Source: Actinomycetota bacterium
GTDB taxonomy: Bacteria > Actinomycetota > Actinomycetes > Actinomycetales > Microbacteriaceae
Direction: 5' to 3'
Assembly (NCBI GenBank): GCA_005778835.1
Contig: SXMG01000046.1
Coordinates: 1 to 51,594, forward strand
Length of the DNA stretch: 51,594 nt
Shown: one piece after another, positions 34,439-48,870 of the stretch
Layout: every line of letters starts with the position of its first letter
How positions within the stretch are numbered: the stretch's first letter is position 1
Notes under the pieces: generated by a model
Database searches by the model: none
Seen by the model: only the letters and a program-made list of their open reading frames with translations
Told to the model about the DNA's origin: nothing
Position numbers and translations under genes: made by a program

Positions 34439-34544
34439 TCAGCCCTCGCGCGTGATCTCGACCGTGACGAAGAGCTTCGAGCTCGACGGCCCGGCGTAGA
34501 CGCCGCGCAGCGGCGGCACGTCGCGGTAGTCGCGGCCGCGGCCG
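34439..34544 (-). pseudogene. Truncated 3' end of a transglutaminase gene (island scar)
   Basis: Encodes only the last 34 residues (GRGRDYRDVPPLRGVYAGPSSSKLF... to EG) of the transglutaminase found complete at 48922-49767, then TGA. There is no start. Within 104 bases only two differ from the complete gene, and both are synonymous (Gly and Pro codons); the stop differs too (TGA here, TAG there). Its upstream part has been replaced by island DNA. Confidence 0.9.
34441..34544. repeat. Left direct repeat of the catabolic island (104 bp)
   Basis: Matches 48924-49027 in the same orientation with two mismatches. It ends exactly where the kinase stop codon (34545-34547) begins. Confidence 0.92.
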
Positions 34545-35504
34545 CTAGCGCTCGACGATGAAACCCTGACTCAATTGGGCGAGATCATCTCGCGTGGGGG
34601 CGCCTTCCCAGTCGCCGGCGAACATGCACGCGTGAGCCCCCGCCGCCGCCGCCGTGCGCAACGACTCCGATACATCAGCGTGGCTCTGCCACTCGGCCAG
34701 GAACCCTCCGACGAACGCATCGCCTGCACCGACCGTGTCGATGACGGGAACTGCGACAGCGTCGACGTAGTGGTCGCCGTCAGGCGTGCGTGCAGCCGCC
34801 CCGCGGGCACCGTCGGTGGCCACGATGATCGCCCGGTCGTAGCGACCGAGGGCGATAAGGGCGGTTGAGAGATCGACGGCAGCTTCGGAGACGATCGAGG
34901 CTTCGTCGACACCGGAGAAGAGCAGATCGGCGGCGGGCGCCAAACGATCGTAGGTGCGACGCGCATCCTCCCGGGTCCACAGCGCTGACCGGAAGTTGAG
35001 GTCGAGAGCGACGAGCGCTCCTGCATCGTGTGCACGGGAGAACAGGCTCTCGAGCTCGTCGGGCAGGTGCGGTGTCAGAGCGGCGGTCACTCCGCTCACC
35101 AGAACCACACCTGTCTGAGCGAGCAGCTCGTCGTCGAGGTCGGTGTGCCGAAACGTCGATGCGGCACTGCCGCTGCGGTAGTACGACACTCGCTGGCGTA
35201 GAGGGCTGCGTCGCTCTTTGACCATGAGTCCGGTCGGGCGATCCGGCACGGTCTGCGCGACCACGGTGATGCCTTCGGCGGCCAGGGCGCGTCGTATTGC
35301 GTGTCCTACGCTGTCGTCGCCGAGTCGGCTCGCCCAGGCCACTCGAGAGCCGAGACGTGAGGCCGTGATGGCGGCGTTGCATTCAGCGCCGCCGAAGCTG
35401 AAGTGCAGAGGAGCCCCGTGGTCGAGTCGACCGACGGTGGTCGTCGAGACCAGACCCATGACCTCTCCGACTGCGAGGATATCGAGACTGCGGTGACCGT
35501 TCAC
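34545..35504 (-). CDS. PfkB-family kinase, probable 2-keto-3-deoxygluconate (KDG) kinase
   Basis: 319 residues from GTG 35504, whose GTGA overlaps the aldolase stop. PfkB features: LAVGEVMG at the N-terminus, FGGAECNAAITASRLG substrate loop, ALDLNFRSALWTREDAR (the DxNxRxxLW stretch typical of KDG kinases) and anion hole DTVGAGDAFVGG. Coupled to a KDPG-type aldolase, it most likely phosphorylates 2-keto-3-deoxygluconate or the galactonate epimer. Its stop codon lies directly at the edge of the island repeat, so the last bases may derive from the recombination event. Confidence 0.88.
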   Translation of the reverse strand: MNGHRSLDILAVGEVMGLVSTTTVGRLDHGAPLHFSFGGAECNAAITASRLGSRVAWASRLGDDSVGHAIRRALAAEGITVVAQTVPDRPTGLMVKERRSPLRQRVSYYRSGSAASTFRHTDLDDELLAQTGVVLVSGVTAALTPHLPDELESLFSRAHDAGALVALDLNFRSALWTREDARRTYDRLAPAADLLFSGVDEASIVSEAAVDLSTALIALGRYDRAIIVATDGARGAAARTPDGDHYVDAVAVPVIDTVGAGDAFVGGFLAEWQSHADVSESLRTAAAAGAHACMFAGDWEGAPTRDDLAQLSQGFIVER

Positions 35505-36160
35505 TGCGCACTCTCGTTCCACGAACGAAGTGCGGTTCTAGCCCGCTCTTCGAGTTCTCGAAGGTCACCGCCCTCCAACGCATCACCCAGGAGCGCGCCT
35601 CCCAGGCTGACCACTCTGGCTCCAGCGGAGCGCCAGTCGGGAATGGACCCCAGCGTCACCCCTCCTGAAGGCATGAGCGACAAGTGCGGCATCGGAGCGA
35701 GCACCTCCCTGACGTAGCCGGCGCCCACCACGGATGCTGGGAAGAGCTTGATCAGCGGAGCGCCAGCGCGATGGCATTCGTGCAACTCGGTGGGAGTCAA
35801 TGCTGCAGGGACGACCGCGACGCCGAGCCGTCGACCACGTTCGAGCACTGCGTCGACCCGCACGGGGCTCACGATGAATTGGGCCCCTGCCGCGACTGCG
35901 CGCGCGGCATCGTCCGCTGACAGGATCGACCCCATTCCGACGAGCAGGCCAGTCGCATGACGAGACCTGATCGTCTCCAACGCGGGAAGTGCACCGGGTG
36001 TGGTCATGGTGAGTTCGACGGCGCTCACTCCCGAGGTCGCGAGGGCCGAGACGGCCTCGACGAGATGGCTTGCCGAGCGTGCTCGCACCACGGGCAGCAC
36101 GCCGCACGCTGTGAGCAGAGCAGTGCTCTCGTCACTCTCGGTTGACGCATTTCCCAGCAC
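35501..36160 (-). CDS. KDPG/KDPGal-type aldolase (Eda/DgoA family)
   Basis: 219 residues from GTG 36160 with GAAGGAG 6 bases upstream. A class I aldolase barrel with GVLPVVRA at the N-terminus, AVELTMTTPGALPALETI, GMGSI, FIVSPV, and Schiff-base Lys138 in LIKLFPASVVG; MPSGGVT binds phosphate. It cleaves 2-keto-3-deoxy-6-phosphogluconate (or galactonate) to pyruvate and glyceraldehyde 3-phosphate. It is the first gene of the aldolase-kinase unit, behind operator site A. Confidence 0.92.
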   Translation of the reverse strand: MLGNASTESDESTALLTACGVLPVVRARSASHLVEAVSALATSGVSAVELTMTTPGALPALETIRSRHATGLLVGMGSILSADDAARAVAAGAQFIVSPVRVDAVLERGRRLGVAVVPAALTPTELHECHRAGAPLIKLFPASVVGAGYVREVLAPMPHLSLMPSGGVTLGSIPDWRSAGARVVSLGGALLGDALEGGDLRELEERARTALRSWNESAQ

Positions 36161-36182
36161 GAGTCACTCCTTCAGAGAGGTC

Positions 36183-36199
36183 TACTTATCTTACAAGTA
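36183..36199. promoter_or_regulatory. GntR/FadR operator site A (aldolase-kinase unit)
   Basis: TACTTATCTTACAAGTA, arms TACTT/AAGTA. On the minus strand a -10-like TAAGAT (36193-36188) lies inside it, so binding would block transcription of the aldolase gene. Confidence 0.7.
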
Positions 36200-36221
36200 A
36201 ACCCTCATCGCGGCGACCGCC

Positions 36222-36953
36222 TCAGGGCGTCGGTACCGGATCAGTCGCAGTGCCGAGCGACTCGTCATCGTACTGAAGGCCCTGGGCGGCTTGCGTCAGA
36301 TGGTCCTGCATCGCACTCGCCGCCCGATCGGGATCGTGCGCAGAGATGGCATCGAAAACGACCTCGTGGGCGTCGACGATCTCCTTGAGCCGCCCCCCCG
36401 CCCTGGTCCACCCCGCCCAGGCGTGCTTGCGCAGTTGGAACAGCAATGGGGTGATTCCATCGAGGGTCAGGAGCACCATGTCGTTGCCTGCGATTCGCGC
36501 AACTTCACGATGGAACGCCTGGTCACGAAGGTGCAGCTCTTCTTCGCCGACGGCGGCCTGAAGATCGTGCAGTCGTTCACGCAGCACCTCGAGGTCCGCA
36601 TCGGTCGCACGGACAGCCGCCAGCCTGGCGGCGCCGATCTCGATGACCTCGCGGTACTCCTGGAGGCTGGCGAAATCTGCCCCCTGCACCGCGAACCGCA
36701 AGCGCAACAGCCGCTCGAGCTGCTCGGCGTCGGGGAGGGTGATGACCGTTTCGCGACCTTGTCGACGCTGCAGCAGACCCTGCCCTGCGAGTTCGGCAAT
36801 GGCCTCTCGCACGACGGTTCTGCTGACATCGAGCACTTCGGCGAGCTCGGCCGTGGGGGGGAGGGAGTCGTTCGCGCGGAGTCGACGGTCTTGGATGAGC
36901 TTGAGGAGTTCGTCGACGGCCATATCTGCAAGGGAGACACGTTGGATGCCCAC
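36222..36953 (-). CDS. GntR-family (FadR subfamily) transcriptional regulator
   Basis: 243 residues from GTG 36953, with AAGGAGG 5 bases upstream. The winged helix (LPPTAELAEVLDVSRTVVREAIAELAGQGLLQRRQGRETVI) is followed by the all-helical FCD ligand domain with Asp/His residues for metal and acid binding (DQAFHREVARIAGN, DAHEVVFDAI, DHLTQAAQG). FadR-type regulators often sense sugar acids or their keto derivatives and bind TNGTNNNACNA-like sites, which fits the island palindromes. It is the only regulator in the island and the likely master repressor. Confidence 0.92.
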   Translation of the reverse strand: MGIQRVSLADMAVDELLKLIQDRRLRANDSLPPTAELAEVLDVSRTVVREAIAELAGQGLLQRRQGRETVITLPDAEQLERLLRLRFAVQGADFASLQEYREVIEIGAARLAAVRATDADLEVLRERLHDLQAAVGEEELHLRDQAFHREVARIAGNDMVLLTLDGITPLLFQLRKHAWAGWTRAGGRLKEIVDAHEVVFDAISAHDPDRAASAMQDHLTQAAQGLQYDDESLGTATDPVPTP

Positions 36954-36987
36954 GAGTCCTCCTTCCCGATCATCGCGAGTCGACGAT

Positions 36988-37004
36988 CACTTATGTACCT
37001 AGCA
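36988..37004. promoter_or_regulatory. Weak GntR/FadR-like site F before the regulator gene
   Basis: CACTTATGTACCTAGCA shares 11 of 17 positions with site A and lies about 35 bases before the regulator start. It is a possible autoregulation site, but weak. Confidence 0.3.
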
Positions 37005-37039
37005 TATGGGCCGAGGAGACGTGACTCGGTGCGTGGCGC

Positions 37040-37732
37040 CTACAAGACTCCGAACGTCTCGTACGCCTCGGTGCTCGACATTCCTCGCGAGATCGCCGTG
37101 CGCGTGACGTCTTCCGCGCGCACCTTGTCGAAGGCCAAGTTGAGCACGTCATTCTCGATCTCACGAGGCACGACCACGACGCCGTCGACATCGCCGACGA
37201 TCAGGTCGCCCGGGTTGATCATGACCCCGTCGATCTCGATCGGCACACGGTAGTCGACCACCGAGGCTCGAACGCCCGCATCTTGGCCGTAGCTGCCTCT
37301 GCTGAACACGGGCCAGTCCTGTGCCAGAACTTTCGCGGTGTCTCGATGGAACCCGTCGATGACCGCCCCCACCGCACCGCGACCACGCGCCGTCGCCGTC
37401 AGAATCTCGCCCCACGCGGCGCAGTGCAGTCTCCCGCTGCGTGCAAGGTAGACCTCCCCCTGCTCGAGCGCATCCAGGGCTTCGGTCAAGCGCCCGAACG
37501 GGCGGGGCTGAGGGCCGAAGACGTCTGCGATCAGCACGGGCATCGCTCGTCCGACGACGGTCATTCCGGGGTCGAGGGGTCGAATCGCTTGAGGAAGGAA
37601 CTGGTGCAGTCGCCCCGCGCTGTCGAGAACATCGCCGATGACAGGGGTGTAGAGACCGGATCGTATGCGCTCGAAAAGTGCGCTGTCGGTCGTTGCGTGT
37701 TCGTTCATGAAGGGCTTTCTGTCGGTGCTCAT
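37040..37732 (-). CDS. RraA-like / HMG-aldolase family protein
   Basis: 230 residues from ATG 37732, chosen because AAGGGGTG lies just upstream; an internal ATG at 37708 is possible. The RraA/HMG-aldolase fold is shown by [37 protein letters not shown] with the Arg-Asp pair used by pyruvate aldolases of this family, and [30 protein letters not shown]. Members range from 4-hydroxy-4-methyl-2-oxoglutarate aldolase to RNase E regulators. Its place after sugar permeases favours an aldolase or decarboxylase role on a keto acid. Confidence 0.85.
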
Positions 37733-37734
37733 CG

Positions 37735-38574
37735 TCACCCCTTGAGGGCGCCGGCGGAGAGGCCGTCGGAGAGACGGCGCTGGAAGACGAGGAAGAAGAT
37801 GATGATGGGAAGGGCCGTCATCACGCTCGCCGCCATGACTCCCGGCCAGTCGGTGAAGAGTGCGCTGATGTACGTCGTCAGCACACCGCTCGCCGGATAG
37901 AGCTTCGGATCGGCGAGGAAATTGATCGCGTAGACGAACTCTCCCCACGACACCATGAACGTGAGGATGCACACCGTGACGACGCCGTTTCGTGCGAGAG
38001 GAACGACGATCGACCAGAACTGACGGAAGGGCCCAGCGCCATCGACCGCTGCGGCCTCGCTGATCTCGCGGGGTATTGCCGCGAAGTACGGACCCATGAG
38101 AAGCAATGCCCACGGCAGCAAGGTCGCGGCCAGTGCCAGGATGACGGCCGGCAGCGTACCGACGAGTCCCCAAGCAGCCAGCACGCGGTAGAGCGGGATG
38201 ACCGATGAAGCGGCCGGGATCATCTGCAGGAAGACGATGACGAGCAGTGTCACGCCTGCGAAGCGCGGAGCGATGCGAGAGATCCAGTACGCGGCGGGTA
38301 CCCCGACGATCGCGACGACCAGCGTCGTGCCGATTGCGATGATCGCCGAGTTCAGAAGTGATTGCGCGCCACCGCGCTCGAAGAAGGCGACGTAGTTCTC
38401 GACCGTCAGCGCACCGAACGCCTCGAACGTCACTCGAGGCACACTCGAGGCGGGTTGGAATGAGCCGAAGAGCAGGACGAACAGCGGAGTGCCATAGAGC
38501 ACGAACAGGACGCCCATCACGCTCACCGGAAGGATGCGGGCGATGCGCTCGTGCCTCAGCATCGAGTTGCTCAC
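37735..38574 (-). CDS. CUT1 sugar ABC transporter permease (MalG-like)
   Basis: 279 residues from GTG 38574, overlapping the previous permease stop (GTGA). Six predicted helices and the EAA loop [30 protein letters not shown]. The C-terminus [14 protein letters not shown] is typical of MalG-type subunits. It partners with the permease at 38571-39509 and the lipoprotein at 39515-40744. No ATPase is in the island, so it should use a shared host ATPase. Confidence 0.92.
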
Positions 38575-39509
38575 AGTGCCCTCCTTCTGATGCTGCGGGC
38601 GTACGGGAGGGCGAAGAGCAGCACGGCGAGGATGGTGATGACGGCCACCGCTGCACCCGCTGAGTAGTCGAAAGCCGTGAACGCCGTGAGGTATCCGAAG
38701 ACGGGGAGCGTCGTGCTCGCGTTGCCCGGTCCGCCGCCCGTCATGACGAAGGTGAAGTCGAAGCTTCGCACCGCATAGGAGAGCAGCAGGATCGACACGA
38801 CGTAGACCGTCGGGGCGATCGACGGAAGGGTGATGTAGCGGAACTGCGCGGAGCGACCAGCGCCATCGACCGTCGCGGCTTCGTACAGCTCGTGGGGCAC
38901 ATCGAGCAACGCTGCTCGGAAGACGATCGCGGCGAAGGGCAGAGCGACCCAGCCTGCGACGAACGCCACGCTCAAGAGTGGTAGCGAACCATCGATGAGA
39001 AACAGAATGGGCTCGTCGATCACGGCGATGGATGTGAGGAACTGGTTGATGATGCCGTCTGCGAAGAGCATGAACCGCCAGGTGACGCCCGAGACGATCG
39101 GGGGCAGTGCCCACATGAGCACGATGAGGGCGTAGGTGACCGATCCGATGCGCGACCGTGCGTGAAGCGCCAGCGCGGCGGCGAGTCCCCCGATGACTCC
39201 GATGACGAGCACGACGATGCCGAACACCACGGTTCGGAGAACAGTCGCGGTGAACCGGGTGTCGTTGAAGAGGTCGACGAAGTTCGCGATGCCGACGAAA
39301 GGCCATTCTCTGAGGAGCGTCGCAGGCGTCACGTCGCTCACGCTCATGCGAACGAGCTCGAACATCGGGTAGCCCACGAACATGATCAGGAACACGCCCG
39401 CAGGTACCGCGAAGTAAAGGGGCGGTCGAGCGCTCCAGGGGGCTCGACGCCGCGCAGGGCGCGGTGCGCGCGACTGTGTCGTCGCGCGCACCGCGGTGTT
39501 CGATACCAC
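38571..39509 (-). CDS. CUT1 sugar ABC transporter permease (MalF-like)
   Basis: 312 residues, starting 5 bases after the binding-protein stop. A basic N-terminus ([17 protein letters not shown]) is followed by six predicted helices; the EAA loop is [29 protein letters not shown]. It is the first permease of the transporter, in an operon with the lipoprotein, second permease and RraA-like gene. Confidence 0.92.
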
Positions 39510-39514
39510 TGCTG

Positions 39515-40744
39515 CTACTCAGCCCCTGCTGCGATCTGGGCTGCTTGAGCAGCTCCGTCCGCTGGGCTGGTTTGTCCGGCGAGAACGCCGCTCCAGAGAT
39601 CGCCGACCGCAAGGGTCGACGCGGTGTCCGACGAGAGCGGAGTGCCATTCGCCGCAGCGTCGGCGTAGGCCTGGACGTTGGGGTCGACATCTCCCTCGAG
39701 AACGTCGGCACGGGTCGGAATGCTACCGAGACCCAGCCGCATCGTTCCATGTTCCTTGGTCAGCCACGTCTGCTTCAAGAACTCCCACGCCAGCGCCTTG
39801 TTGGTCGGGAAGGCTCCGAGAGCTTCCGCTTGTCCACCCAGGTACACGACCGCCGGCCCTTCAGGCCCGGCCGGCATGGGGGCGACACCCCAGTCGAAGC
39901 CGCCCTCGGCCGGCAGCGTGAGCTGCCAGTTGCCGCCGACATAGAAGGCGACATCGCCAGCGACGAACTCGTTGACCGCCTCGGCCTGCGGCAGCGTGAC
40001 AGTGGCCCGGGGCACCAGGCCCTCGTCAACCCACCCGGCGACCCGGGTGAACATCTCCTCGACGGCAGGATCGCCGTAGTCAGAGAAGTTCTGAACGCCG
40101 TAGCCGGTGAAGAACGCCTTGGAGACCCACTCACCCGCGACTCCGGGTGCACCCGGAAGCATCATGCCCCGGTACCCCGCTGCAGTCGCCGCTCGCATGG
40201 CGTCTTCGAGTTCGTCGAGCGTGGTCGGCACCGCGACGCCGAGCTCATCGAGGATCGTCTGGTTGTAGTACAGCGCGTTCAAGTTCACGTAGGCCTGCAC
40301 ACCGTAGATGCGATCGCCCGAAGTCTGAAGCACGGACTCGGGGAAGAGATCGGCGTCTTCGAACGAGGCCCACTCCTCAGTGATGTCGCCGATGACTCCT
40401 GCGTCGGCGAAGGTCTTCGTGAAGGCGCCGTTGTACCACATGATGTCCGGACCGCTTTGGCTGGTCGCCGCCGAGATGATCCGGTTGGGGAACTGCTCTT
40501 CGGGGATGAACGTCACTTCGAACTCGACGTTCGGGTAGAGCTCCTGGAACTGCGCGATCTGCGGGTCGATGTCCTGCAGGCCGGCCGTCTCGTTGTAGTG
40601 CCAGATGGTGAGCGTCGCCTCGATGTCGGGGGTGAGCGGCTCGTCGCTCGGGGCCTCAGTGCTCTGGGAGCAGGCGACCAGGGCGACGGCGAGCGGCAAT
40701 GCGAGTGCCGCTGCCAGCGCCTTCCTTCGTGACCTCGTTGTCAT
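39515..40744 (-). CDS. CUT1 sugar ABC transporter solute-binding lipoprotein
   Basis: 409 residues; ATG 40744 has GAAGGAG 6 bases upstream. The signal peptide ends in lipobox VACS (Cys at about residue 25). A family 1 binding-protein fold follows (ATLTIWHYNETAGLQDIDPQIAQFQELYPNVEFEV, GPDIMWYNGAF, YGVQAYVNLNALYYN, FVAGDVAFYVGGNWQL). The CUT1 class imports di- and oligosaccharides, glycosides or modified sugars. It is the first gene of the transporter operon, directly behind operator site B. Confidence 0.93.
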   Translation of the reverse strand: MTTRSRRKALAAALALPLAVALVACSQSTEAPSDEPLTPDIEATLTIWHYNETAGLQDIDPQIAQFQELYPNVEFEVTFIPEEQFPNRIISAATSQSGPDIMWYNGAFTKTFADAGVIGDITEEWASFEDADLFPESVLQTSGDRIYGVQAYVNLNALYYNQTILDELGVAVPTTLDELEDAMRAATAAGYRGMMLPGAPGVAGEWVSKAFFTGYGVQNFSDYGDPAVEEMFTRVAGWVDEGLVPRATVTLPQAEAVNEFVAGDVAFYVGGNWQLTLPAEGGFDWGVAPMPAGPEGPAVVYLGGQAEALGAFPTNKALAWEFLKQTWLTKEHGTMRLGLGSIPTRADVLEGDVDPNVQAYADAAANGTPLSSDTASTLAVGDLWSGVLAGQTSPADGAAQAAQIAAGAE

Positions 40745-40787
40745 GATGAACTCCTTCGGGGTTCGGAATGTGATGGGGATACATCCT

Positions 40788-40810
40788 GCCTACTTGTGTG
40801 ACAAGTAGGC
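40788..40810. promoter_or_regulatory. GntR/FadR operator site B (transporter operon), perfect palindrome
   Basis: Arms GCCTACTTG and CAAGTAGGC are perfect, with TGTGA between. The core TTGTGTGACAA fits the FadR-subfamily pattern TNGTNNNACNA. On the minus strand TTGTCA could be the -35 box, with TATCCC 17 bases downstream as -10. Confidence 0.8.
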
Positions 40811-40840
40811 AATCAGGCTACATCTGTCACGCCTTGCTGT

Positions 40841-42220
40841 CTAGGGTTGCGCAGGAGAGAGCCGGAGCGCCCTGTATCCGCCTCCTCGAGTGCCATCGGC
40901 GCCGATGGATACCGCGAAGGTGTCGTCCGTGATGTCCTCCGACAAGCCGCTCACGAGATCGGTCATGCGCAGGTGCACGTCGGGATCGAAGCCAAGCCGC
41001 GCTCTCGGCAGGCGCACCATCGTCGACACCTCCGCAGCAGCGGGGTTGGTGACGACCACGATCGCCTCGACGCCCTCGTCGACGAGGGCATAGGGCACGA
41101 AGGGCGTCGCGCCGTCGAAGGGAATCGGCACGATCTGCATGGTCGAGGAGTCACCGTTGATGAGATGCCGATACTCGTGTCGGATGCGAAGCATTGTTCG
41201 AACGTCTTCCAGCATGTCCGCGCAGTGAGCCAGCTCTAGTTGGCTCCAGTCGAGTCGATTGCCGTACAGCCATCCGCCCGGTCCACCCGTGCCGTAGAGG
41301 CCCTGCGTCAGGTCAGGAAGCGGGGTAGGTGTGGCATTGAACTCCTCGCCTGCGAAGAAGAGGGGGATGCGGGGTGCGAGCAGCGAGATGTGAGCCATGC
41401 GCGCTCGACTGCCCTGGGCGAAGTAGTGATTGCCCGGAAGGTTCTCCCAGCCGTAGTCATGGCAGCTGATCTGCGCCGAGGCCAATCCGCGAGGCACCCC
41501 GACGATGTCGTCGATGTGGATCTCGCGATAGACATCGCGGGGCGTGCCCTGGTTGTCTTGCTGAGAGAAGTGGTAGCGCTCGATCTCAGGGAAGACCACG
41601 ATCTCTTTGCCCCCCGCGCGACACGCCTCGACAATCTCGTCCCACAACTCGACATCGCCCATCAGCACGTCGATACGGAACCCATCGACACCGTAATCAA
41701 GGGCGTACTTGGTCCACAGCGCCACCCACCACGAGCGGAACTCCGGGTTCTGGTAGTCGTAGTCGGCCATCTGCCAGCTGGACGTCGGAAACCACTCCGG
41801 GTGCTCCGCGACGAGCGGGCTGTCGTGCAGCACGCCGTGCGCGATGACATCGAGGAAGATGCGGATGCCGTGCTCGCGTGCCACGCGGATGAGACGGCGA
41901 AAGTCATCCTCCGTGCCGAGCACAGGATCGATCACATCAGGACGACGCACGGCGTAGACGGACCAAACGCCGTAGAAGTGCTTGGTCGCCTCGTGGTGCC
42001 CGGCTAACCACAGGGCATTCACACCGAGATCTCTCAGGTACGGAAGCTTCTCTTCGAGAGACGCGAAAGTGCCGCTGCCGCTGCCATCGCCCACCCCATG
42101 CGGCGAAGTGAAGCCTCGGGGGTTGAGCTCGTAGATCACGAGGTGCTTGGCCCACTCCGGCGCGGTCTTCGCTCGCATTGCCCAAGGGTCCGTCGCACTG
42201 ACTTCGTCACTCGTGTGCAT
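40841..42220 (-). CDS. GH13 (alpha-amylase family) intracellular glycosidase or transglycosidase
   Basis: 459 residues; ATG 42220 has AAAGGAG 8 bases upstream. No signal peptide. An (alpha/beta)8 barrel starts with HLVIYELNPRGFTSP; DVIAHGVLHDSPL is region I; nucleophile Asp184 lies in DGFRIDV (region II), acid/base Glu212 in VFPEIERY (region III), and region IV is a CHD motif. A C-terminal beta domain follows (about 380-459). The protein is short and the sequence around region IV is unusual for maltases. It should hydrolyse or phosphorolyse an alpha-glycoside imported by the island transporter; exact specificity is unknown. Confidence 0.85.
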   Translation of the reverse strand: MHTSDEVSATDPWAMRAKTAPEWAKHLVIYELNPRGFTSPHGVGDGSGSGTFASLEEKLPYLRDLGVNALWLAGHHEATKHFYGVWSVYAVRRPDVIDPVLGTEDDFRRLIRVAREHGIRIFLDVIAHGVLHDSPLVAEHPEWFPTSSWQMADYDYQNPEFRSWWVALWTKYALDYGVDGFRIDVLMGDVELWDEIVEACRAGGKEIVVFPEIERYHFSQQDNQGTPRDVYREIHIDDIVGVPRGLASAQISCHDYGWENLPGNHYFAQGSRARMAHISLLAPRIPLFFAGEEFNATPTPLPDLTQGLYGTGGPGGWLYGNRLDWSQLELAHCADMLEDVRTMLRIRHEYRHLINGDSSTMQIVPIPFDGATPFVPYALVDEGVEAIVVVTNPAAAEVSTMVRLPRARLGFDPDVHLRMTDLVSGLSEDITDDTFAVSIGADGTRGGGYRALRLSPAQP

Positions 42221-42284
42221 TCTCTAGGCTCCTTTGCCACTGGGGTTTATCACCGGCACGGTTGCAGCCGCACGGAGAGTCATC

Positions 42285-42301
42285 TACTTGTAGTATATGT
42301 C
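42285..42301. promoter_or_regulatory. GntR/FadR-like operator site C (SDR/enolase/P450-electron-transfer operon)
   Basis: TACTTGTAGTATATGTC has one intact arm (TACTTGT) and a diverged second arm. It lies between the divergent GH13 and SDR genes and could serve either. Confidence 0.55.
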
Positions 42302-42351
42302 GGACACGGGCGTTCGCGATGGCGAGACCGCCCCTCGACGAAAGGGCATCC

Positions 42352-43158
42352 ATGCCGAGCGATCGGAAGACTTCCGGGTACCTCTCGGCCCAGTTCGGTG
42401 TCGAAGGCATGACGGCGCTCGTCACCGGTTCGACGCGCGGAATCGGGTTCGGGATTGCGCGAGCGCTCGCTGAGGCCGGAGCGCAGGTCATCGTTCATGG
42501 CCGGGATGCCGAGCGTGCACATGACGCAGGGAGGTCGATCGGCGCCGCCGACGTCGTGGTCGCCGATCTGGGCTCGCCAGAAGAGGTGCTGCAGATGTGC
42601 GACGGTCTCGTGCAGCGCGAAACGCCGATCGACCTGGTCGTCAACAACGCCGGAGTCGAGATCGGCTCTCGGCTCGAGACCATGAATGACGACGACCTCT
42701 GGTCGACATTGCACGTCAATCTGATGGCCCCCATGGCACTGCTGCGGGAGCTTCTCCCGTCGCTGAGGCGATCACATCGAGCAAGCGTCATCAACGTCTC
42801 TTCGATCCACGAGGTGGTTCCATCCTGGGGCAATTCGGCCTACGCCGCCTCGAAGGCCGCCCTCGCGATGGTCACCAAGACGCTCGCCATCGAGTGGGGT
42901 CCGGAGGGGATCCGAGTCAACGCCATCGCGCCCGGCGCGATTGCGACGGACATCAATGCTGACGTCATCGAAGAGATCGGCGAAGAGAGTTTTCGAGAGT
43001 GGATTCCGCTCGGTCGCGTGGGCACTCCTGATGACATCGGCCCGGCCGCCGTGTTCCTGGCGAGCAGAGCAGCGCAGTACATGACCGGCGCCACACTCGT
43101 CATCGACGGGGGCTACAGTCACCACCTCGTGCGCTATCGGCACTCCGACCACGCGTGA
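42352..43158 (+). CDS. Short-chain dehydrogenase/reductase (SDR)
   Basis: 268 residues from ATG 42352, with AAAGGG about 6 bases upstream; the frame is open further upstream but lacks a ribosome site. Classical SDR: cofactor loop VTGSTRGIGFGIA, NNAGVE, and catalytic Ser in VSSIHE with Tyr164 and Lys168 (YAASK), ending in MTGATLVIDGGYS. It probably oxidises the sugar at C1 (sugar dehydrogenase giving a lactone) or another hydroxyl. It starts the plus-strand operon SDR-enolase-SDR-ferredoxin-reductase. Confidence 0.9.
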   Translation: MPSDRKTSGYLSAQFGVEGMTALVTGSTRGIGFGIARALAEAGAQVIVHGRDAERAHDAGRSIGAADVVVADLGSPEEVLQMCDGLVQRETPIDLVVNNAGVEIGSRLETMNDDDLWSTLHVNLMAPMALLRELLPSLRRSHRASVINVSSIHEVVPSWGNSAYAASKAALAMVTKTLAIEWGPEGIRVNAIAPGAIATDINADVIEEIGEESFREWIPLGRVGTPDDIGPAAVFLASRAAQYMTGATLVIDGGYSHHLVRYRHSDHA

Positions 43159-43198
43159 CCCGCACCGCGGCACCCACCTGAACGACGAAAGGCGCAAC

Positions 43199-44446
43199 AT
43201 GAGAATTCGATCGGTCACGACCGCTGTCGTGGAGGCGAACTTCGACTGGACGATCATCCGTATCGAGACCGAGGACGGCCTGGTGGGGTGGGGCGAGTCG
43301 TTCTTCGCCCCGGGGCTGACGTCGATCATCAAGAGCATGGGCGAGTTGATCACGGGAAGCGACGCGCGCGACAGTCAGGCGATCGTGGCGCGACTTCTGA
43401 CCGCGACCTCCGGAGCGGGCTCGGTGGGTGGCATCATTCACAATGCGATCTCGGGCATCGACGGCGCCCTGTGGGATCTCAATGCGCGGGCGCTCGGCGT
43501 GCCCCTCTGGCGTCTGCTGGGGGGCCGCTTCACAGAAGCTGTGCGGGTGTATGCCGACTGTCACGGTGGCTCGGGCCTCATGAGCCTGGGTCCGATGCTG
43601 GACATTCGGAGACCCCGATGGGATCACGGCGAGGAGATCGCCGACGGTCAGGTGGGCCGCATGCTCTTCGACCCCGGGGCCGAGACTGAGCCCATCGACT
43701 TCGACTTGCTGGAAGAGCGAGCGCGCGACGCGGCAGCCGCTGGTTTCGATGCTCTGAAGTTCGACCTCGATGTGCCGGGGCTCGTTCCGCTGCACCAGGG
43801 ATCGAAGACGATGCCCCCGGGTGGTGAAGAACTGGCGGCCGCCATGGTGGCCGCGGTGCGCCGAGGTGCTGGACCGACGACAGAGCTCGCGTTCGATCTC
43901 CACTGGCGATACGACCTCGCCTCGGCCACGCGCATCGCCCAGGCCCTCGATGGCGTGCCTCTGCTGTGGTTGGAGGATCCGCTTCCCCCCGACAATGTCG
44001 CCGGTCTCCTCGCCCTGAGCCGCTCGGTCACTGTTCCCCTGGGCGGCGGCGAGAACCTCATCGGGTACCGTGCGTTCGAACCGGTCATCGACGCGCACGC
44101 ACTCGCTGTCGTCACCCCCGACCTCGGCAAAGTGGGAGGGGTGGCGCAAGCTCGCCGAATCGCCGAGGCCGCATCAGATCGCGGCATGTCGATCGCACCG
44201 CACAACATCGCCGGCCCGGTGGGCACGGCTTTCGCCGCACAGGTTTCGAGTACGTGGCCGAACTTCTTGGCGCTCGAGTTTCATGCTCAGGATGTTCCGT
44301 TCTTCGACGACATCGTGGGATCCCCGGTCATCGATGAAGGTTCCATCGCGATGACTGAGCGTCCCGGCATCGGGTTCGAGGTCGATGTCGACGCCGTTCG
44401 ACAGTGGAGCAAGGCCGACGAGCTCGTGTTCGGCGAGTCACGATGA
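43199..44446 (+). CDS. Enolase-superfamily acid-sugar dehydratase (mandelate racemase/galactonate dehydratase group)
   Basis: 415 residues. The N-terminal capping domain (VVEANFDWTIIRIETEDGLVGWGESFFAPGL) is followed by the barrel. Metal ligands Asp233 (AFDLHW), Glu259 (WLEDP) and Glu285 (GGGENL) are spaced by 26 residues each, as usual; His335 in IAPHN is the likely general base/acid. Such enzymes remove water from aldonic acids to give 2-keto-3-deoxy acids. With an SDR upstream and a KDG-type kinase and aldolase in the island, a gluconate/galactonate-type dehydratase is the best guess. Confidence 0.9.
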   Translation: MRIRSVTTAVVEANFDWTIIRIETEDGLVGWGESFFAPGLTSIIKSMGELITGSDARDSQAIVARLLTATSGAGSVGGIIHNAISGIDGALWDLNARALGVPLWRLLGGRFTEAVRVYADCHGGSGLMSLGPMLDIRRPRWDHGEEIADGQVGRMLFDPGAETEPIDFDLLEERARDAAAAGFDALKFDLDVPGLVPLHQGSKTMPPGGEELAAAMVAAVRRGAGPTTELAFDLHWRYDLASATRIAQALDGVPLLWLEDPLPPDNVAGLLALSRSVTVPLGGGENLIGYRAFEPVIDAHALAVVTPDLGKVGGVAQARRIAEAASDRGMSIAPHNIAGPVGTAFAAQVSSTWPNFLALEFHAQDVPFFDDIVGSPVIDEGSIAMTERPGIGFEVDVDAVRQWSKADELVFGESR

Positions 44447-45216
44447 TCAGCATCGACTTGTCGGCGGAGACCTATCTCGTCACGGGCGCGGCGGGATCGA
44501 TCGGCCGAGCGGTCTCGCGCACGCTCGCCACCGCAGGGGCGGCGATCATCGTTGCCGACCTGTCGCACGGCGCAGCGGACGATGTCGCCGCCGAGATCGT
44601 GGCAGAGGGCGGGCGCGCGCACGCCACGGCGGTCGACATCACGGAGCGCGGATCGGTCGAGCGCGCGGCGGACGAGGGCGAGCGCGCACTCGGCCGCATC
44701 ACCGGGCTCGTCAACGCGGCTGGAGTTCTTCGCGCCGGCGCTGTCGACGAACTCAGCGACGACGACTGGGCCACCAGCCATGCGGTGAACGCGACAGGCA
44801 CGTTCAACACCACCCGCGTAGTTGCGCCTCGGATGCGCACTGCCGGCTCTGGGTCGATCGTCAATCTCGCGTCAGTGGCAGCGTTCTCGGGATCCGATGT
44901 CGGATCCGCCTACCACGCCACGAAGGGCGCCGTACTGAGCTTCACCTACGCCACGGCTGGCGAACTGGCCGCGGACGGCATCCGTGTGAACGCGGTATGC
45001 CCTGGCTGGGTCGATGGCGGCTTCACCCACCACGCGCTCGCCACAGCCGCCGACCCGGCGGCTCTCATCGCGACCGCCAACTCGATGCACTACCTCGGGC
45101 GCATGGCGACTCCCGACGATGTCGCGGGTGCTGTGGTCTGGCTGATGTCGCCGCTCGCAGCCTTCGTGACGGGAACCGCTGTCTTCGTCGATGGCGGCTA
45201 CATGATCAAGCACTGA
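44443..45216 (+). CDS. Short-chain dehydrogenase/reductase (SDR), second island copy
   Basis: 257 residues from ATG 44443, overlapping the dehydratase stop by ATGA. Cofactor loop VTGAAGSIGRAVSRTLA with an acidic residue after the second strand (ADLS), suggesting NAD. NAAGVL, NLASVAAFSG, catalytic Tyr157 and Lys161 (YHATK) and a TGTAVFVDGGY end. It is only moderately similar to the first SDR, so it probably oxidises a different hydroxyl or aldehyde of the same pathway. Confidence 0.9.
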   Translation: MISIDLSAETYLVTGAAGSIGRAVSRTLATAGAAIIVADLSHGAADDVAAEIVAEGGRAHATAVDITERGSVERAADEGERALGRITGLVNAAGVLRAGAVDELSDDDWATSHAVNATGTFNTTRVVAPRMRTAGSGSIVNLASVAAFSGSDVGSAYHATKGAVLSFTYATAGELAADGIRVNAVCPGWVDGGFTHHALATAADPAALIATANSMHYLGRMATPDDVAGAVVWLMSPLAAFVTGTAVFVDGGYMIKH

Positions 45217-45239
45217 GTGCATCACCACTCACTCTGGTA

Positions 45240-45256
45240 TACTTGTACTACATGTA
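45240..45256. promoter_or_regulatory. GntR/FadR operator site D (ferredoxin-reductase genes)
   Basis: TACTTGTACTACATGTA has arms TACTTGTA and TACATGTA with one mismatch. A -10-like TATACT (45238-45243) overlaps it, 39 bases before the ferredoxin start, so the ferredoxin and reductase can be transcribed separately under the same control. Confidence 0.7.
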
Positions 45257-45282
45257 GTTCAGTCTGAGAAGGGTGCCCGACG

Positions 45283-45474
45283 GTGATCAGGATCCAGGTC
45301 GACATGGGTAAGTGTCAGCATTACGGGCAATGCGTGTTCGAGGCGCCCGAGACATTTCGCCTGAATGACGATGATCGACTCGAGTACGAGCGCGAAGCGA
45401 ACGAGGCTGACCGAGAGAAGCTCGAGGCTGCCGCAGACGTGTGCCCGATGCAGGCGATCACCCTTCTCGATTGA
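45283..45474 (+). CDS. [3Fe-4S] ferredoxin of a P450 system
   Basis: 63 residues from GTG 45283 with AGAAGGG upstream. MGKCQHYGQCVFEAPETF and DVCPMQAI give three cluster Cys residues (11, 17 and 53 or so) with a His at the usual fourth Cys position, the pattern of single-cluster [3Fe-4S] ferredoxins that feed bacterial P450s. Very acidic. It carries electrons from the reductase encoded directly downstream to the P450 at 46690-47841. Confidence 0.92.
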   Translation: MIRIQVDMGKCQHYGQCVFEAPETFRLNDDDRLEYEREANEADREKLEAAADVCPMQAITLLD

Positions 45475-46679
45475 CCAGGCCGACCAGCGCCGACCTTGTC
45501 ATCGTCGGGGCCGGGCTCGGGGCACTCCGCACCGCTGAGGCTGCGCGCAGAGCTGGATTCTCCGGCTCGATCCTCGTCATCGGCCGCGAGTCGCATCCGC
45601 CCTACAATCGACCTCCGTTGTCGAAGACGGCGCTCATCAGCGAGCTCACATCGGCGGATCTCGCCTTTCCTCTGCGCAGCGCCGTAGACGACGTCGAGTG
45701 GATGCTCTCCACCGCCATCGATCGCGCCGACCTCGCACAGGCTCGTGTCACGACTTCCGGCGATCAGAGCATCCACTACGACCACCTGGTGATCGCGACG
45801 GGCCGCACGCCACGCCGCCTTCCCTCGTCGGTCGCGCCCGACCGTCGACACGTCGTCTACACCATCGAAGATGCCCAGCGCCTCCGGCGGAGCACGTCGG
45901 CGGGCGAGAGGGTGGCCATCATCGGCGGCGGCTTCATCGGGTGCGAAGTCGCCGCATCATTGAGAGCTCGAGGGTGCGCTGTCACGCTCGTCTGCTCGGG
46001 CGACGTGCCGCTCGAGCGGACCCTGGGCCGGCGGCTCGCCGAGGCCCTCGTCGACCGGCATCGCCTCGAGGGCGTCGTCATCGAGTCCCGCAGCCGCGTG
46101 CTTGAGCTGGTCGACCGTGTCGACGGTGTCGCGATGTCGCTCGAAGACGGGCGCACGCTCGTTGTCGACGCCGTGGTCGAAGCCCTGGGCTCCGTCCCGG
46201 CGGCCGACTGGCTGGCAGACGGTGACGTGGTCGTCGAGGCAGGGGTCGCGACCGACCCCTGGCTGCGCGCGCGCAAGGCTTCAGGCGGAGTGTGGTCGAA
46301 CGTTCACGTCGTCGGAGATGTCGCGCAGGTGCCGCACCCCCTTTCCGACCAAGCCTCGATCGTGCTGCCGCATTGGTCGACACCGGTCGACACCGCCAGA
46401 GTCGTCGGGGCAGCGGTCGCGGCTTCCGCCCGCGGCGAGCGGGTATCCGCCCTGCCCGCGTTCTCAGCATTGCCGACCTTCTGGACGGATCAGTACGACC
46501 TGCACATGCTGTCGTACGGAATGCCCGCGACCGCCGATAACCACGAACTGATCGCAGGCTCGTACGGGAGCGAGTGCGTCGTCGGATACAGCCGCCAGGG
46601 TCGGCTCATCGGAGTGGTCGGCGTGGGCATGCGCTCGAGTGTCATGGCACTGCGCGACCGGATTGGCCAGGCGATCTGA
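45471..46679 (+). CDS. FAD-dependent NAD(P)H ferredoxin reductase
   Basis: 402 residues from TTG 45471, whose TTGA overlaps the ferredoxin stop. FAD-binding DLVIVGAGLGALRTAEAARRAGFSG, YNRPPLSK, ATGRTPRRLP, the NAD(P)H motif VAIIGGGFIGCEVAASL and the second FAD motif NVHVVGDVAQV define the putidaredoxin/rhodocoxin-reductase group. The C-terminal domain contains FWTDQYDLHM. It passes electrons from NAD(P)H to the adjacent ferredoxin. It is convergent with the P450 gene, 10 bases between stops. Confidence 0.93.
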   Translation: MTRPTSADLVIVGAGLGALRTAEAARRAGFSGSILVIGRESHPPYNRPPLSKTALISELTSADLAFPLRSAVDDVEWMLSTAIDRADLAQARVTTSGDQSIHYDHLVIATGRTPRRLPSSVAPDRRHVVYTIEDAQRLRRSTSAGERVAIIGGGFIGCEVAASLRARGCAVTLVCSGDVPLERTLGRRLAEALVDRHRLEGVVIESRSRVLELVDRVDGVAMSLEDGRTLVVDAVVEALGSVPAADWLADGDVVVEAGVATDPWLRARKASGGVWSNVHVVGDVAQVPHPLSDQASIVLPHWSTPVDTARVVGAAVAASARGERVSALPAFSALPTFWTDQYDLHMLSYGMPATADNHELIAGSYGSECVVGYSRQGRLIGVVGVGMRSSVMALRDRIGQAI

Positions 46680-46689
46680 GCACTGCGGC

Positions 46690-47841
46690 TCAGCCTCGCA
46701 CGACGCGGATGGGCATCGAGAGAAACGACTCCACAGCGATCGTCGCGTCTGGCCCTTCTCCGTTCTGCTCCCAGTCGATCGCGGGCTCGCCGTCGAGCTG
46801 CCAGCCGGGCCACTGCGTCACGAGCGCTGAGATCATCGCCTTCGCCTCGAACTCGGTGATGTTCATGCCCATGCATGAGTGGCGCCCGATGCCGAAGGCC
46901 ACGTGGGGCTTGCGGTCGCGGTGAATGTCGATGGTGTCGGCGTCGGGCCAGATCGAACGGTCGTGATTGGCCGACAACCAGTTGATGAGCACGTAGCGGC
47001 GAGGATCGTCTTGCTCGAGTGCGCGCCTGGTCGGGTCGGAACTCAGTCGCTCCATCTGCTTGATAGGCGAGAGATAGCGAGCGAGTTCGGCGATGGCCTT
47101 GTTGTAGGCCTCTGGATGCTCACGCAGGTACTCGCGGTCGTCCGGTACCCGGATCAGATGCCAAGCAATGCCCACGATCAGCTTGATGACCGTGTCCCGA
47201 CCACCGGCAAGCAGCAGCATGGCGATGCCGAACGTCTCCTCGCGGGTCGGCGCTTCTCCGTTGACGCGGATGCCGGCGATCCAGTCCCACACATCCGTTG
47301 TCGCGGGATCGGCACCTACCGCTGGCGTCGCCTCGGCGAATACGCGCTCGAGGTAGCGGTAGAGCATGTCACCCGACCGCAGACTCGCTTCGCCGAACTG
47401 TCGATTGCGAGCCGCCCTGCGTGACTCGACGACACTCATGCCTTTCGAGTAGGCCTCGGCAGTCCAGACGTCTGGGCCCCAGCTGAGCCACTCGTCGAGG
47501 TCTTGCGGTCGGTTGTAGATGATCGAGAGGCAGCCCATGACGTAACGTAGTCCGAGATCGGGCACGAGGTCTCCGCCTCCTCGCGCAGTGATGTCGTCGA
47601 TGAGCTGCCGGGCAAGGGCCTCGAACTGCGGCGCCTTGCCTTCCAGGTGGGAGCTGTGGAAGATCGGCTGCACGGCCTCCCGGAAGAGCGTGTGGCGTGG
47701 CGGATCGATCTCGAGCGGTATCGCCTTGTAGTCGCGCACGTCGCGGTCACCGAGAAGGTCGCTGGAGTAGGTCTCGTAGTCGCGCGCCGCTGCACGGACG
47801 TTGTGGTAACCGCGGATCTCTTCACGCTCCGACATCTGCAT
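46690..47841 (-). CDS. Cytochrome P450 (class I bacterial)
   Basis: 383 residues. Heme-binding FGIGRHSCMG with Cys323, I-helix LLLAGGRDTVIK (the A/G-G-x-D-T oxygen-activation motif), K-helix ELAR (ExxR) and the PERF-region equivalent NHDRSIWPD are present; soluble, no membrane anchor. ATG 47841 has AGGAG 4 bases upstream; ATG 47835 is an alternative. Electrons should come from the ferredoxin and reductase encoded next door. With sugar transport and acid-sugar genes around it and operator half-site E in front, oxidation of a sugar derivative, for example O-demethylation, is a working hypothesis; an aglycone hydroxylase is the alternative. Confidence 0.95.
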   Translation of the reverse strand: MQMSEREEIRGYHNVRAAARDYETYSSDLLGDRDVRDYKAIPLEIDPPRHTLFREAVQPIFHSSHLEGKAPQFEALARQLIDDITARGGGDLVPDLGLRYVMGCLSIIYNRPQDLDEWLSWGPDVWTAEAYSKGMSVVESRRAARNRQFGEASLRSGDMLYRYLERVFAEATPAVGADPATTDVWDWIAGIRVNGEAPTREETFGIAMLLLAGGRDTVIKLIVGIAWHLIRVPDDREYLREHPEAYNKAIAELARYLSPIKQMERLSSDPTRRALEQDDPRRYVLINWLSANHDRSIWPDADTIDIHRDRKPHVAFGIGRHSCMGMNITEFEAKAMISALVTQWPGWQLDGEPAIDWEQNGEGPDATIAVESFLSMPIRVVRG

Positions 47842-47868
47842 GAGGCTCCTGTGCTCGCTAAGAGATAT

Positions 47869-47876
47869 GATAAGTA
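47869..47876. promoter_or_regulatory. GntR/FadR half-site E (P450 gene)
   Basis: GATAAGTA equals one arm of site A (TACTTATC reversed). It lies 28 bases before the P450 start; the second arm is not well conserved. Confidence 0.4.
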
Positions 47877-47895
47877 GATACGTAGAATAGCACGC

Positions 47896-48870
47896 TCACG
47901 ACGCTTGCAACGGAGTCGAGCTGGTCAAGAATCGGCCCCCGATAACCCATTCCGTCAGGTAGATCGCCCCGTCGAGGTCGATTGCCACCCCGTGCGGGCT
48001 GTTGAGCTGTCCCTCCCGCAGAAGCGGGCGTCGCAACGTCTCATCGATGAGCACGTTGGGCCAGCCCTTCCGCGCAGGCCAGCCCTCATCGTTCTCGACA
48101 CGATCTGCCCGGTCGACCACGACGGCGATAGACCCGTCATGTCCGATCTCGAGCAGCGCCCCATCGAGCTCAGTCAGCACGATGCGGTGCGCATTCGCGG
48201 CGAGGCAACTCGGGCTGCGCATACGGGGGTCGGTGATCACGTCGATGACATCCCCTTCGGGCGTCAATCGAACAATCCTGCGATTCTTCCGGTCCGCGAC
48301 GAGGAGCATCCACTCACCCTCCATGGTGGCGAAGAGGAGACCGTGAGGACACGAGAACGGCGCGCCCGACGCGTTGCCGTCGATTGACCGGACGAGGTCG
48401 CCCTGAGGCGAGAAGAGGTGGAGCAGATTCTGACCGTAGCCGTCTGCCACCCAGATGAATCCCTCACGGTCACCCCTGATGTCCACCGCGATCGACGTCG
48501 GCCGCCACGGTTCCGACGCGAGACCGCGGTGAAACGGATCCTCGAGCTCCATGAGAACTCTGCCCTCGAGATCGATTGCGACAGCACGTCCCTCGCCGGG
48601 AATCCACTCGTAATCGCGCGCCGGTTCAGGCCTCACGCCCGGGTCGGCAACCCACACCCGGGCCCCGTGCACCGTCAGCCCGTGCAGTTCGGTCAACCCC
48701 GTGGGCACAGAACGGCCGGCGGGACTCTGATCGTCCATCACGATGAGCTCCCCGCTTCGCGGCGAGCCGAAGACGATGCCTCCAGAGTCGAGAATTGCGA
48801 CACCGGTATGGCACCACTCGTCGACGCCATCACCAGCCGACCAGAACTCGCTCCACGGTGATCGGTGCAC
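47896..48870 (-). CDS. Six-bladed beta-propeller (NHL/SMP-30-like) protein, candidate lactonase
   Basis: 324 residues from GTG 48870, chosen because AAGGAGG lies 5 bases upstream; the longer GTG 48885 contains that site. Repeats such as GFIWVADGYGQNLLHLFSPQGDLVRSI, WMLLVADRKNRRIVRLTPEGDVIDVI, HGVAIDLDGAIYLTEWVIGGR are NHL/SMP-30 blades. No signal peptide. In an oxidative sugar pathway the aldonolactone made by an SDR needs a lactonase, and this is the only candidate in the island. It lies 51 bases after the transglutaminase stop on the same strand and may be read through from there. Confidence 0.8.
   Translation of the reverse strand: MHRSPWSEFWSAGDGVDEWCHTGVAILDSGGIVFGSPRSGELIVMDDQSPAGRSVPTGLTELHGLTVHGARVWVADPGVRPEPARDYEWIPGEGRAVAIDLEGRVLMELEDPFHRGLASEPWRPTSIAVDIRGDREGFIWVADGYGQNLLHLFSPQGDLVRSIDGNASGAPFSCPHGLLFATMEGEWMLLVADRKNRRIVRLTPEGDVIDVITDPRMRSPSCLAANAHRIVLTELDGALLEIGHDGSIAVVVDRADRVENDEGWPARKGWPNVLIDETLRRPLLREGQLNSPHGVAIDLDGAIYLTEWVIGGRFLTSSTPLQAS

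What the first reader, a model, noticed from the sequence alone, without database searches (positions are those of the whole stretch)
34545..48870. A P450 system embedded in an acid-sugar catabolic island: candidate oxidative demethylation or oxidation of a modified sugar
Seen: one block contains CUT1 sugar uptake, GH13, two SDRs, an enolase-superfamily dehydratase, an NHL propeller protein, a KDG-type kinase, a KDPG-type aldolase, an RraA-like protein and a complete P450/ferredoxin/reductase set. Known: P450s with ferredoxin and reductase remove the methyl group of 6-O-methyl-D-galactose in marine Bacteroidetes. Inference: here a P450 prepares an O-methylated or otherwise blocked sugar, then SDR (lactone), propeller lactonase, dehydratase, kinase and aldolase yield pyruvate and glyceraldehyde 3-phosphate. 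I know of no such actinobacterial system, and the substrate and the fate of any formaldehyde are open.
Basis: partly seen in the sequence, partly recalled or inferred. Interest (0 to 1): 0.86.

Follow-up and report, generated by a model that had tools for sequence, protein, structure and literature searches.

The report
Mobile sugar island carrying sugar-type P450
An actinobacterium carries a 14-kb inserted block of genes that look made for taking up and breaking down an unusual sugar, including an oxygen-using enzyme related to one that strips methyl groups from an algal sugar and an unassigned propeller protein whose relatives often lie beside such enzymes.

Summary
The gene list is right, and the block is one physical unit: 34545-48917 is bracketed by a 110-bp direct repeat (96%) of a transglutaminase gene's 3' end. 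In 12 of 18 relatives native flank follows that gene instead, and GC is lower than in the flank. The palindrome TACTTGTnnnACAAGTA occurs with one or no mismatch only three times in the 2.47-Mb assembly, all in the block: before the sugar-binding protein, the aldolase, and ferredoxin/reductase. That ties the P450's redox partners to the sugar genes.

In trees of 41 and 58 P450s the window P450 and its relatives form a clade with the 6-O-methylgalactose P450 (6g5o), support 100/99. Sugar O-demethylation is the best reading; substrate unproven.

The 'propeller lactonase' misses the lactonase cut-off. It belongs to an NHL-propeller family with four invariant His, found beside a P450 at 12 of 20 places. 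That pairing is the most novel part.

The parts
34435..34544 (.). left copy of 110-bp direct repeat (3' end of a transglutaminase gene), left boundary of the island
   Evidence: 96% identical to 48918-49027; followed by native downstream sequence in relatives
34545..35522 (-). PfkB-family kinase, 2-keto-3-deoxy-gluconate/galactonate type
   Evidence: NF041332 180 bits, below the 440-bit cut-off
35501..36160 (-). KDPG/KHG-type aldolase
   Evidence: TIGR01182 139 bits, cut-off 156
36183..36199 (.). palindromic operator candidate, 1 mismatch, 23 bp before the aldolase start
36222..36953 (-). GntR/FadR-type regulator, probable regulator of the island
   Evidence: relatives 41-56% in G294, G118, G048, G280
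37040..37732 (-). RraA-like protein
   Evidence: PF03737 117 bits
37735..38574 (-). CUT1 permease, MalG-like
38571..39509 (-). CUT1 permease, MalF-like
39515..40744 (-). sugar-binding protein of the transporter
   Evidence: PF13416, PF01547
40791..40807 (.). perfect palindromic operator TACTTGTGTGACAAGTA before the binding-protein gene
40841..42220 (-). GH13 protein; no signal peptide seen by eye
   Evidence: PF00128 68 bits; 62% relative in the G294 module
42285..42301 (.). weaker operator candidate (3 mismatches) in the GH13/SDR1 divergent region
42319..43158 (+). SDR1, gluconate 5-dehydrogenase/glucose dehydrogenase-like; start uncertain, open frame from 42262
43199..44446 (+). enolase-superfamily (MR/MLE) protein, probable sugar-acid dehydratase
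   Evidence: best PDB match 2qq6, unassigned, 240 bits
44443..45216 (+). SDR2; start uncertain, open frame from 44404
   Evidence: 50% relative in the G294 module
45240..45256 (.). operator candidate (1 mismatch), 27 bp before the ferredoxin start
45283..45474 (+). 63-aa single-cluster (3Fe-4S/4Fe-4S type) ferredoxin
   Evidence: PF13370 44 bits
45471..46679 (+). NAD(P)H:ferredoxin reductase; start uncertain, open frame from 45441
   Evidence: PF07992 162 bits, PF14759
46690..47841 (-). cytochrome P450, sister lineage of the 6-O-methylgalactose P450
47896..48885 (-). NHL-propeller protein (P450-associated family; proposed partner enzyme)
48918..49027 (.). right copy of the direct repeat, right boundary (end of the intact transglutaminase gene, 48922-49767)

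Best explanation
The block is a horizontally acquired catabolic island, inserted at the 3' end of a transglutaminase gene, for using a sugar that carries an O-alkyl (most likely O-methyl) group. A CUT1 transporter imports an oligosaccharide or glycoside and a cytoplasmic GH13 opens it. The P450, fed by its ferredoxin and reductase, hydroxylates the O-methyl carbon; the hemiacetal breaks down to a free hydroxyl and formaldehyde, with or without help from the NHL protein. SDR(s), dehydratase, kinase and aldolase take the sugar through an acid and a 2-keto-3-deoxy-acid to pyruvate and a triose phosphate. A GntR-type regulator reads the TACTTGTnnnACAAGTA operator. Shown: gene content, insertion, operator distribution, P450 phylogeny. 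Inferred: all reactions, their order, the regulator-operator link and the substrate. Speculative logic: a 6-O-methyl group would block the kinase's C6 phosphorylation, which would explain why demethylation belongs in this pathway.
For: P450 best PDB match is 6g5o/6g5q (136.9 bits; next 90.5), titled 'The structure of a carbohydrate active P450'. Clade of window family plus 6g5o-type: 100/99 in 41 rows and 58 rows. GGRDT in 19 of 19 clade rows and 0 of 33 other rows. Operator: 3 sites with one or no mismatch in the 2.47-Mb assembly, all in the island, one before ferredoxin/reductase; none at that level in 100 Markov copies of the island. Flanking repeat and empty sites. Sugar-linked neighbours at 9 of 16 other loci of the family, partly judged by eye: CUT1 transporters, GH78, GH125, GH13, GH127-like, rhamnonate-type hydrolase, ROK regulators.
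Against: No activity data. P450 identity to 6g5o is only about 25%. In the reverse search other P450s score as high as family members, and in the window's own genome and in G310 the best match is a different P450. Dehydratase, kinase and aldolase do not accompany this P450 at the 16 other loci; 7 of the 16 show no sugar genes in the stretch read. No operator with five or fewer mismatches lies in the gaps before the P450 and NHL genes. The operator pattern was chosen from the sites; at up to 3 mismatches the reversed control pattern has more matches (81 per strand) than the pattern (18). No mycothiol-dependent formaldehyde dehydrogenase above cut-off in the 81%-complete assembly.
Confidence: 0.5

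Rival explanations
1. The P450 acts on a sugar-borne group other than a methyl ether: it hydroxylates the carbon next to an ether or glycosidic oxygen (carboxymethyl or lactyl ether, aryl or alkyl glycoside), and the NHL propeller cleaves the resulting hemiacetal, as the PHM/PAL pair does for peptides.
For: The NHL family lies within about 4 kb of a P450 at 12 of 20 places found, with P450s of at least two well-separated clades (window family; G220/G318/G087/G082) and a third type (G377/G1006) whose separation from the second is weakly resolved, and beside a PhyH dioxygenase at one more. Four His plus Tyr150, Arg199, Arg203, Glu312 and Arg318 invariant in 19 of 19. Virginiamycin B lyase and PAL are among the nearest natural enzymes by fold (ranks 3 and 7).
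Against: The PAL match is weak and mostly general NHL similarity. Eight of 20 places show no P450. Methyl hemiacetals collapse without an enzyme.
Confidence: 0.2
2. Composite island: a sugar-acid module whose substrate needs no P450, with an independent P450/NHL module carried along.
For: Module A is syntenic in G294 (38-62% identity) and close dehydratases with regulator, aldolase and kinase matches lie in G118, G048 and G280; none of the four is among the 77 of 398 genomes with a match to the window P450 at E 1e-15. P450, ferredoxin, reductase and NHL genes occur in G237 and G335 without this sugar-acid module.
Against: Shared operator before ferredoxin/reductase, which follow SDR2 on the same strand after 66 bp; one insertion.
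Confidence: 0.18
3. The P450 is an ordinary terpene, steroid or fatty-acid hydroxylase carried by chance.
For: Many P450s share 22-34% identity with it. 7 of 16 family loci show no sugar genes.
Against: The trees put it with the carbohydrate P450 and apart from CYP142; sugar-linked neighbours in 9 of 16 other loci.
Confidence: 0.1

Closest known systems
6-O-methyl-D-galactose demethylating P450 system of Zobellia and Formosa (PMC10033563, abstract and passages seen; Reisky 2018 and Robb 2018 not held)
   Same: P450 in one clade (100/99), GGRDT I-helix, ferredoxin and FAD reductase genes nearby, sugar-catabolic setting
   Different: About 25% identity to 6g5o; 63-aa single-cluster ferredoxin here against 2Fe-2S beside the Catenovulum and Microscilla relatives; no zinc alcohol dehydrogenase among the island genes, which the marine loci have (PMC10033563; Microscilla); NHL propeller and sugar-acid pathway here; Actinomycetota
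Gluconate/galactonate degradation through 2-keto-3-deoxy acids (established pathway, recalled)
   Same: dehydrogenase, MR/MLE dehydratase, KDG-type kinase, KDPG-type aldolase
   Different: dehydratase, kinase and aldolase below NCBIfam cut-offs; P450, RraA and GH13 added; no gluconolactonase profile match above cut-off
PHM/PAL two-step oxidative dealkylation (peptide amidation; recalled)
   Same: a monooxygenase gene beside an NHL-type propeller with invariant His
   Different: P450 in place of a copper oxygenase; sequence link to PAL weak; no activity data
Non-phosphorylative L-rhamnose/L-fucose route (SDR plus 2,4-didehydro-3-deoxy-acid hydrolase; pathway recalled)
   Same: genes directly downstream of the family P450 in L001 (hydrolase 334 bits, cut-off 500) and, by eye, in L002 and L010
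   Different: not the pathway in the window; suggests other family members act on 6-deoxyhexoses

Membership tests
6g5o-type carbohydrate P450 | falls in one clade with 6g5o, apart from other P450s | tested here: met
   100/99; outgroups limited to 21 and 39 rows, one of the 39 a mis-picked frame (L117_out); CYP142A3 the only named reference outside the clade
6g5o-type carbohydrate P450 | same P450 family by identity (about 40%, convention recalled) | tested here: not met
   about 25% identity: sister lineage, not a member
6g5o-type carbohydrate P450 | GGRDT I-helix shared with 6g5o | tested here: met
   19 of 19 against 0 of 33 others, one of the 33 the mis-picked frame; motif chosen after seeing the alignment
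6g5o-type carbohydrate P450 | neighbouring ferredoxin and FAD reductase | tested here: met
   ferredoxin type differs
6g5o-type carbohydrate P450 | removes a sugar O-methyl group | not testable with these tools
   needs enzyme assay
SMP-30/gluconolactonase | Pfam SGL above gathering score | tested here: not met
   20.8 against 26.3 bits; the relative in L029 does pass, 31.6 bits, that in L012 has no SGL match
PAL-type lyase | NHL propeller with a His metal site and specific kinship to PAL | tested here: inconclusive
   four invariant His in 19 of 19; 3fvz E 9.6e-12 behind designed and TRIM/Thin/PknD NHL proteins; model pLDDT 69
Gluconate/galactonate dehydratase (MR/MLE) | equivalog score above cut-off | tested here: not met
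   167.6 against 311, 162.4 against 750 bits
KDG kinase and KDPG aldolase | NCBIfam cut-offs | tested here: not met
   180/440 and 139.1/156.05 bits; assigned as related, not as members
Integrated island at a gene 3' end | direct repeats plus empty site in relatives | tested here: met
   no integrase among the island genes identified

The most novel reading that the evidence does not exclude
An actinobacterial two-component oxidative dealkylation system for sugars: a P450 (of two or more lineages) hydroxylates an O-alkyl carbon of a sugar, and a dedicated NHL-propeller enzyme with a four-His site cleaves the hemiacetal. It would be a bacterial parallel of PHM/PAL, here built into a mobile, GntR-controlled sugar-acid island.
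Probability: 0.22. Interest if true: 0.85.

Novelty: new variant of a known kind. Interest (0 to 1): 0.6.

Why it matters
The sugar-demethylating P450 described in the paper whose passages I read (PMC10033563) is from marine bacteria. This would extend the activity to a sister lineage found in Microbacteriaceae and other Actinomycetota MAGs, several with lake or pond names in their titles, and next to rhamnosidase, mannosidase and sugar-ABC genes. The inference is that O-methylated sugars of algae and bacteria are food for such bacteria. It also gives a testable candidate function for an NHL-propeller family that often lies beside P450s.

Tried and rejected
A lactonase function is not excluded: the L029 relative passes that cut-off (31.6 against 26.3).

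Tried without result: structural ranking of the P450 model (pLDDT 67, 6g5q rank 8, 6g5o rank 15) is inconclusive. The window P450 against plasmids gave 25-31% identity in the 20 of 901 records listed. Formaldehyde dehydrogenase search: nothing over cut-off. The PAL alignment itself was never printed, since 3fvz ranked below the five shown. Paper searches with terms for actinobacterial or freshwater sugar-demethylating P450s listed no such system (listings; of the papers listed passages of PMC8371827 were read). Searches for PAL residues gave nothing usable.

Technical faults: in the 58-row tree L117_out is a mis-picked open frame (branch 3.5), and six outgroup rows used a fallback pick. One search stopped with a script error after its motif tally; 6 of 20 new outgroup loci were missing from that tally. 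The simple gene picker mis-called some high-GC frames and the low-GC loci; positions there rest on tblastn. Many neighbour names at related loci (ROK, AraC, SDR, hydrolase in L002 and L010, esterase in L004, L007 and L009) were given by eye.
Full report
What is there. On the minus strand: kinase, aldolase, GntR, RraA, MalG, MalF, binding protein, GH13. On the plus strand: SDR1, MR/MLE protein, SDR2, ferredoxin, reductase. Convergent to these on the minus strand: NHL propeller then P450. Profile matches for the dehydratase, kinase and aldolase are clear but below NCBIfam cut-offs, so I name types, not substrates.

The block is one insertion. A 110-bp direct repeat, 96% identical, lies at 34435-34544 and 48918-49027. 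It is the 3' end of a transglutaminase gene. Of the 25 other genomes of the genus searched, 18 have that gene above threshold. In 12 of these 18, sequence of the window's left flank lies within about 1.5 kb downstream of the gene, in several within 60 bp of the repeat (G401, G404, G400, G410; also G409, G405 and G411, which resume further into the flank). None of the 18 loci (about 3.8 kb each, one 2.1 kb) matches the propeller/P450 stretch. Five others show no left-flank match and one locus is truncated. Island GC is 0.650; 41 same-size windows of the left flank span 0.683-0.698. I identified no integrase among the island genes.

The block shares an operator. TACTTGTnnnACAAGTA occurs at 40791 (0 mismatches, before the binding protein), 36183 (1, before the aldolase), 45240 (1, before ferredoxin/reductase) and 42285 (3, GH13/SDR1 divergent region). 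Over the whole 2.47-Mb, 81%-complete assembly the pattern with up to 3 mismatches has 18 places; 4 are in the island, and the only three with 1 or fewer are all in the island. The tool's control, the pattern read backwards, has 81 matches per strand at up to 3 mismatches, so the loose matches mean nothing and only the near-perfect ones count. One hundred Markov copies of the island gave none with 1 or fewer. The pattern came from the sites, so this is a consistency test. The related module in G294 has a 2-mismatch site upstream of its binding-protein gene. No site with five or fewer mismatches lies in the gaps before the P450 or the NHL gene; the NHL gene starts 32 bp from the repeat and may be read from elsewhere.

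The P450. Its family (45% identity or more) is in 8 of 398 genomes of the bacterial family, the window's own included, and in 12 of 13 named loci, all MAGs titled Actinomycetota, Micrococcales, Actinomycetales, Microbacteriaceae or Microbacterium. In a sample of 396 genomes of the phylum only the window's own has it; six others match at 27-32%. The best PDB match is 6g5o, titled a carbohydrate active P450. PMC10033563 (abstract and passages) says that a P450 with ferredoxin and reductase turns 6-O-methyl-D-galactose into galactose and formaldehyde in Zobellia and Formosa, and that the Zobellia P450 structure was solved; that 6g5o is this structure follows from its title and my recall. Trees of 41 and 58 rows give one clade of the family with 6g5o and its Catenovulum and Microscilla relatives, 100/99. 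GGRDT is in 19 of 19 clade rows and 0 of 33 others. Identity to 6g5o is about 25%. I call it a sister lineage.

Neighbours at the 16 other loci of the family (several names by eye). Nine have sugar-linked genes: L001 (SDR, rhamnonate-type hydrolase, FMN dehydrogenase, CUT1, GH78), L002 and L010 (SDR, hydrolase), L006 (ferredoxin, reductase, ROK), L011 (ferredoxin, reductase, GH125), L012 (CUT1, ROK, ferredoxin, reductase, propeller, GH127-like), L027 and L028 (CUT1, GH13), L029 (ROK, ferredoxin, reductase, propeller). Seven show none in the stretch read (L003, L004, L005, L007, L008, L009, L026; L004 and L007 are short contigs). The window's dehydratase, kinase, aldolase, RraA and GntR have no match at any of the 16.

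The sugar-acid module alone. The dehydratase has matches at E 1e-50 in 5 of 398 family genomes, the window's own included, and in 1 of 26 genomes of the genus at E 1e-60, the window's own. G294 has the SDR2-GH13-binding protein-permeases-RraA-GntR set at 49-62% with a dehydratase at 38%; G118, G048 and G280 have 71-72% dehydratases with GntR, aldolase and kinase matches. None of these four is among the 77 genomes with a match to the window P450. The P450 therefore looks like an addition to a working module.

The propeller. It is NHL by Pfam and below the gluconolactonase cut-off; one relative (L029) is above it. Relatives: 12 of 398 family genomes, the window's own included (13 places), and 7 further genomes in a class sample of 325. 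A P450 lies within about 4 kb at 8 of the 13 and 4 of the 7: 12 of 20 in all. One of the other eight (G325 contig 23) is cut by a contig end. The P450s belong to the window family, to a second clade (G220, G318, G087, G082; G941, G996 and G924 match it at about 43%) and to a G377/G1006 type (55% to each other) whose separation from the second clade is weakly resolved. In G345 a PhyH-type dioxygenase gene precedes it directly. G285, G325 contig 2 and G041 showed no oxygenase in the stretch read. Three 1.3-1.5-Mb genomes (G918, G950, G972) have it with no P450 match in about 6 kb. For scale, the window's genome has 4 P450 genes in 2.47 Mb. His26, 68, 181 and 298, Tyr150, Arg199, Arg203, Glu312 and Arg318 are invariant in 19 of 19 full sequences. 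By fold the model (pLDDT 69) resembles NHL proteins, virginiamycin B lyase (rank 3) and PAL (rank 7). The kinship to PAL is weak.

Mechanism. I commit to oxidative O-demethylation (or a close O-dealkylation) of a sugar or sugar acid feeding the keto-deoxy-acid pathway (0.5). The lactone step, the order of reactions and the substrate are inference. The 6-O-methyl idea rests on the recalled fact that KDG-type kinases phosphorylate C6. The fate of formaldehyde is open: the 81%-complete assembly has no mycothiol-dependent formaldehyde dehydrogenase above cut-off (best 103.5 against 512.9 bits).

Novelty. Paper searches listed no actinobacterial sugar-demethylating P450 (an open-licence library), so absence from print is not shown.

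Noticed in passing
window 8507-22826: A separate plant-polysaccharide type cluster: GH10 with CBM9 and CBM4_9 (8507-12514), sugar-binding protein and permease (17986-20464), GH1 (20679-22826).
   Followed up: no
L001 9938-21116: Family P450 followed by an SDR and a 2,4-didehydro-3-deoxy-L-rhamnonate-hydrolase-like protein, with an FMN-dependent dehydrogenase, CUT1 transporter and GH78 rhamnosidase: a candidate O-methyl-rhamnose locus.
   Followed up: partly
L011 2172-4605: GH125 alpha-mannosidase gene divergent from and next to the family P450.
   Followed up: no
L004, L005, L006, L007, L009; L054 6746-7561: A PF00756-type esterase lies next to the P450 or close by in several loci of the family (Pfam-checked in L005 and L006, by eye in the others) and also near the Microscilla P450; role unknown.
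   Followed up: partly
L093 4932-6751: NHL-propeller gene directly after a PhyH-type dioxygenase gene instead of a P450.
   Followed up: partly
L131-L133: Propeller family members at about 32% identity in 1.3-1.5-Mb genomes without a P450 match nearby.
   Followed up: no
L130, L134, L135: In three 7-Mb genomes the propeller sits with a P450 of a second clade, a reductase (tblastn in L130 and L134), a small ferredoxin (by eye in L130 and L134) and a sugar-type ABC transporter.
   Followed up: partly
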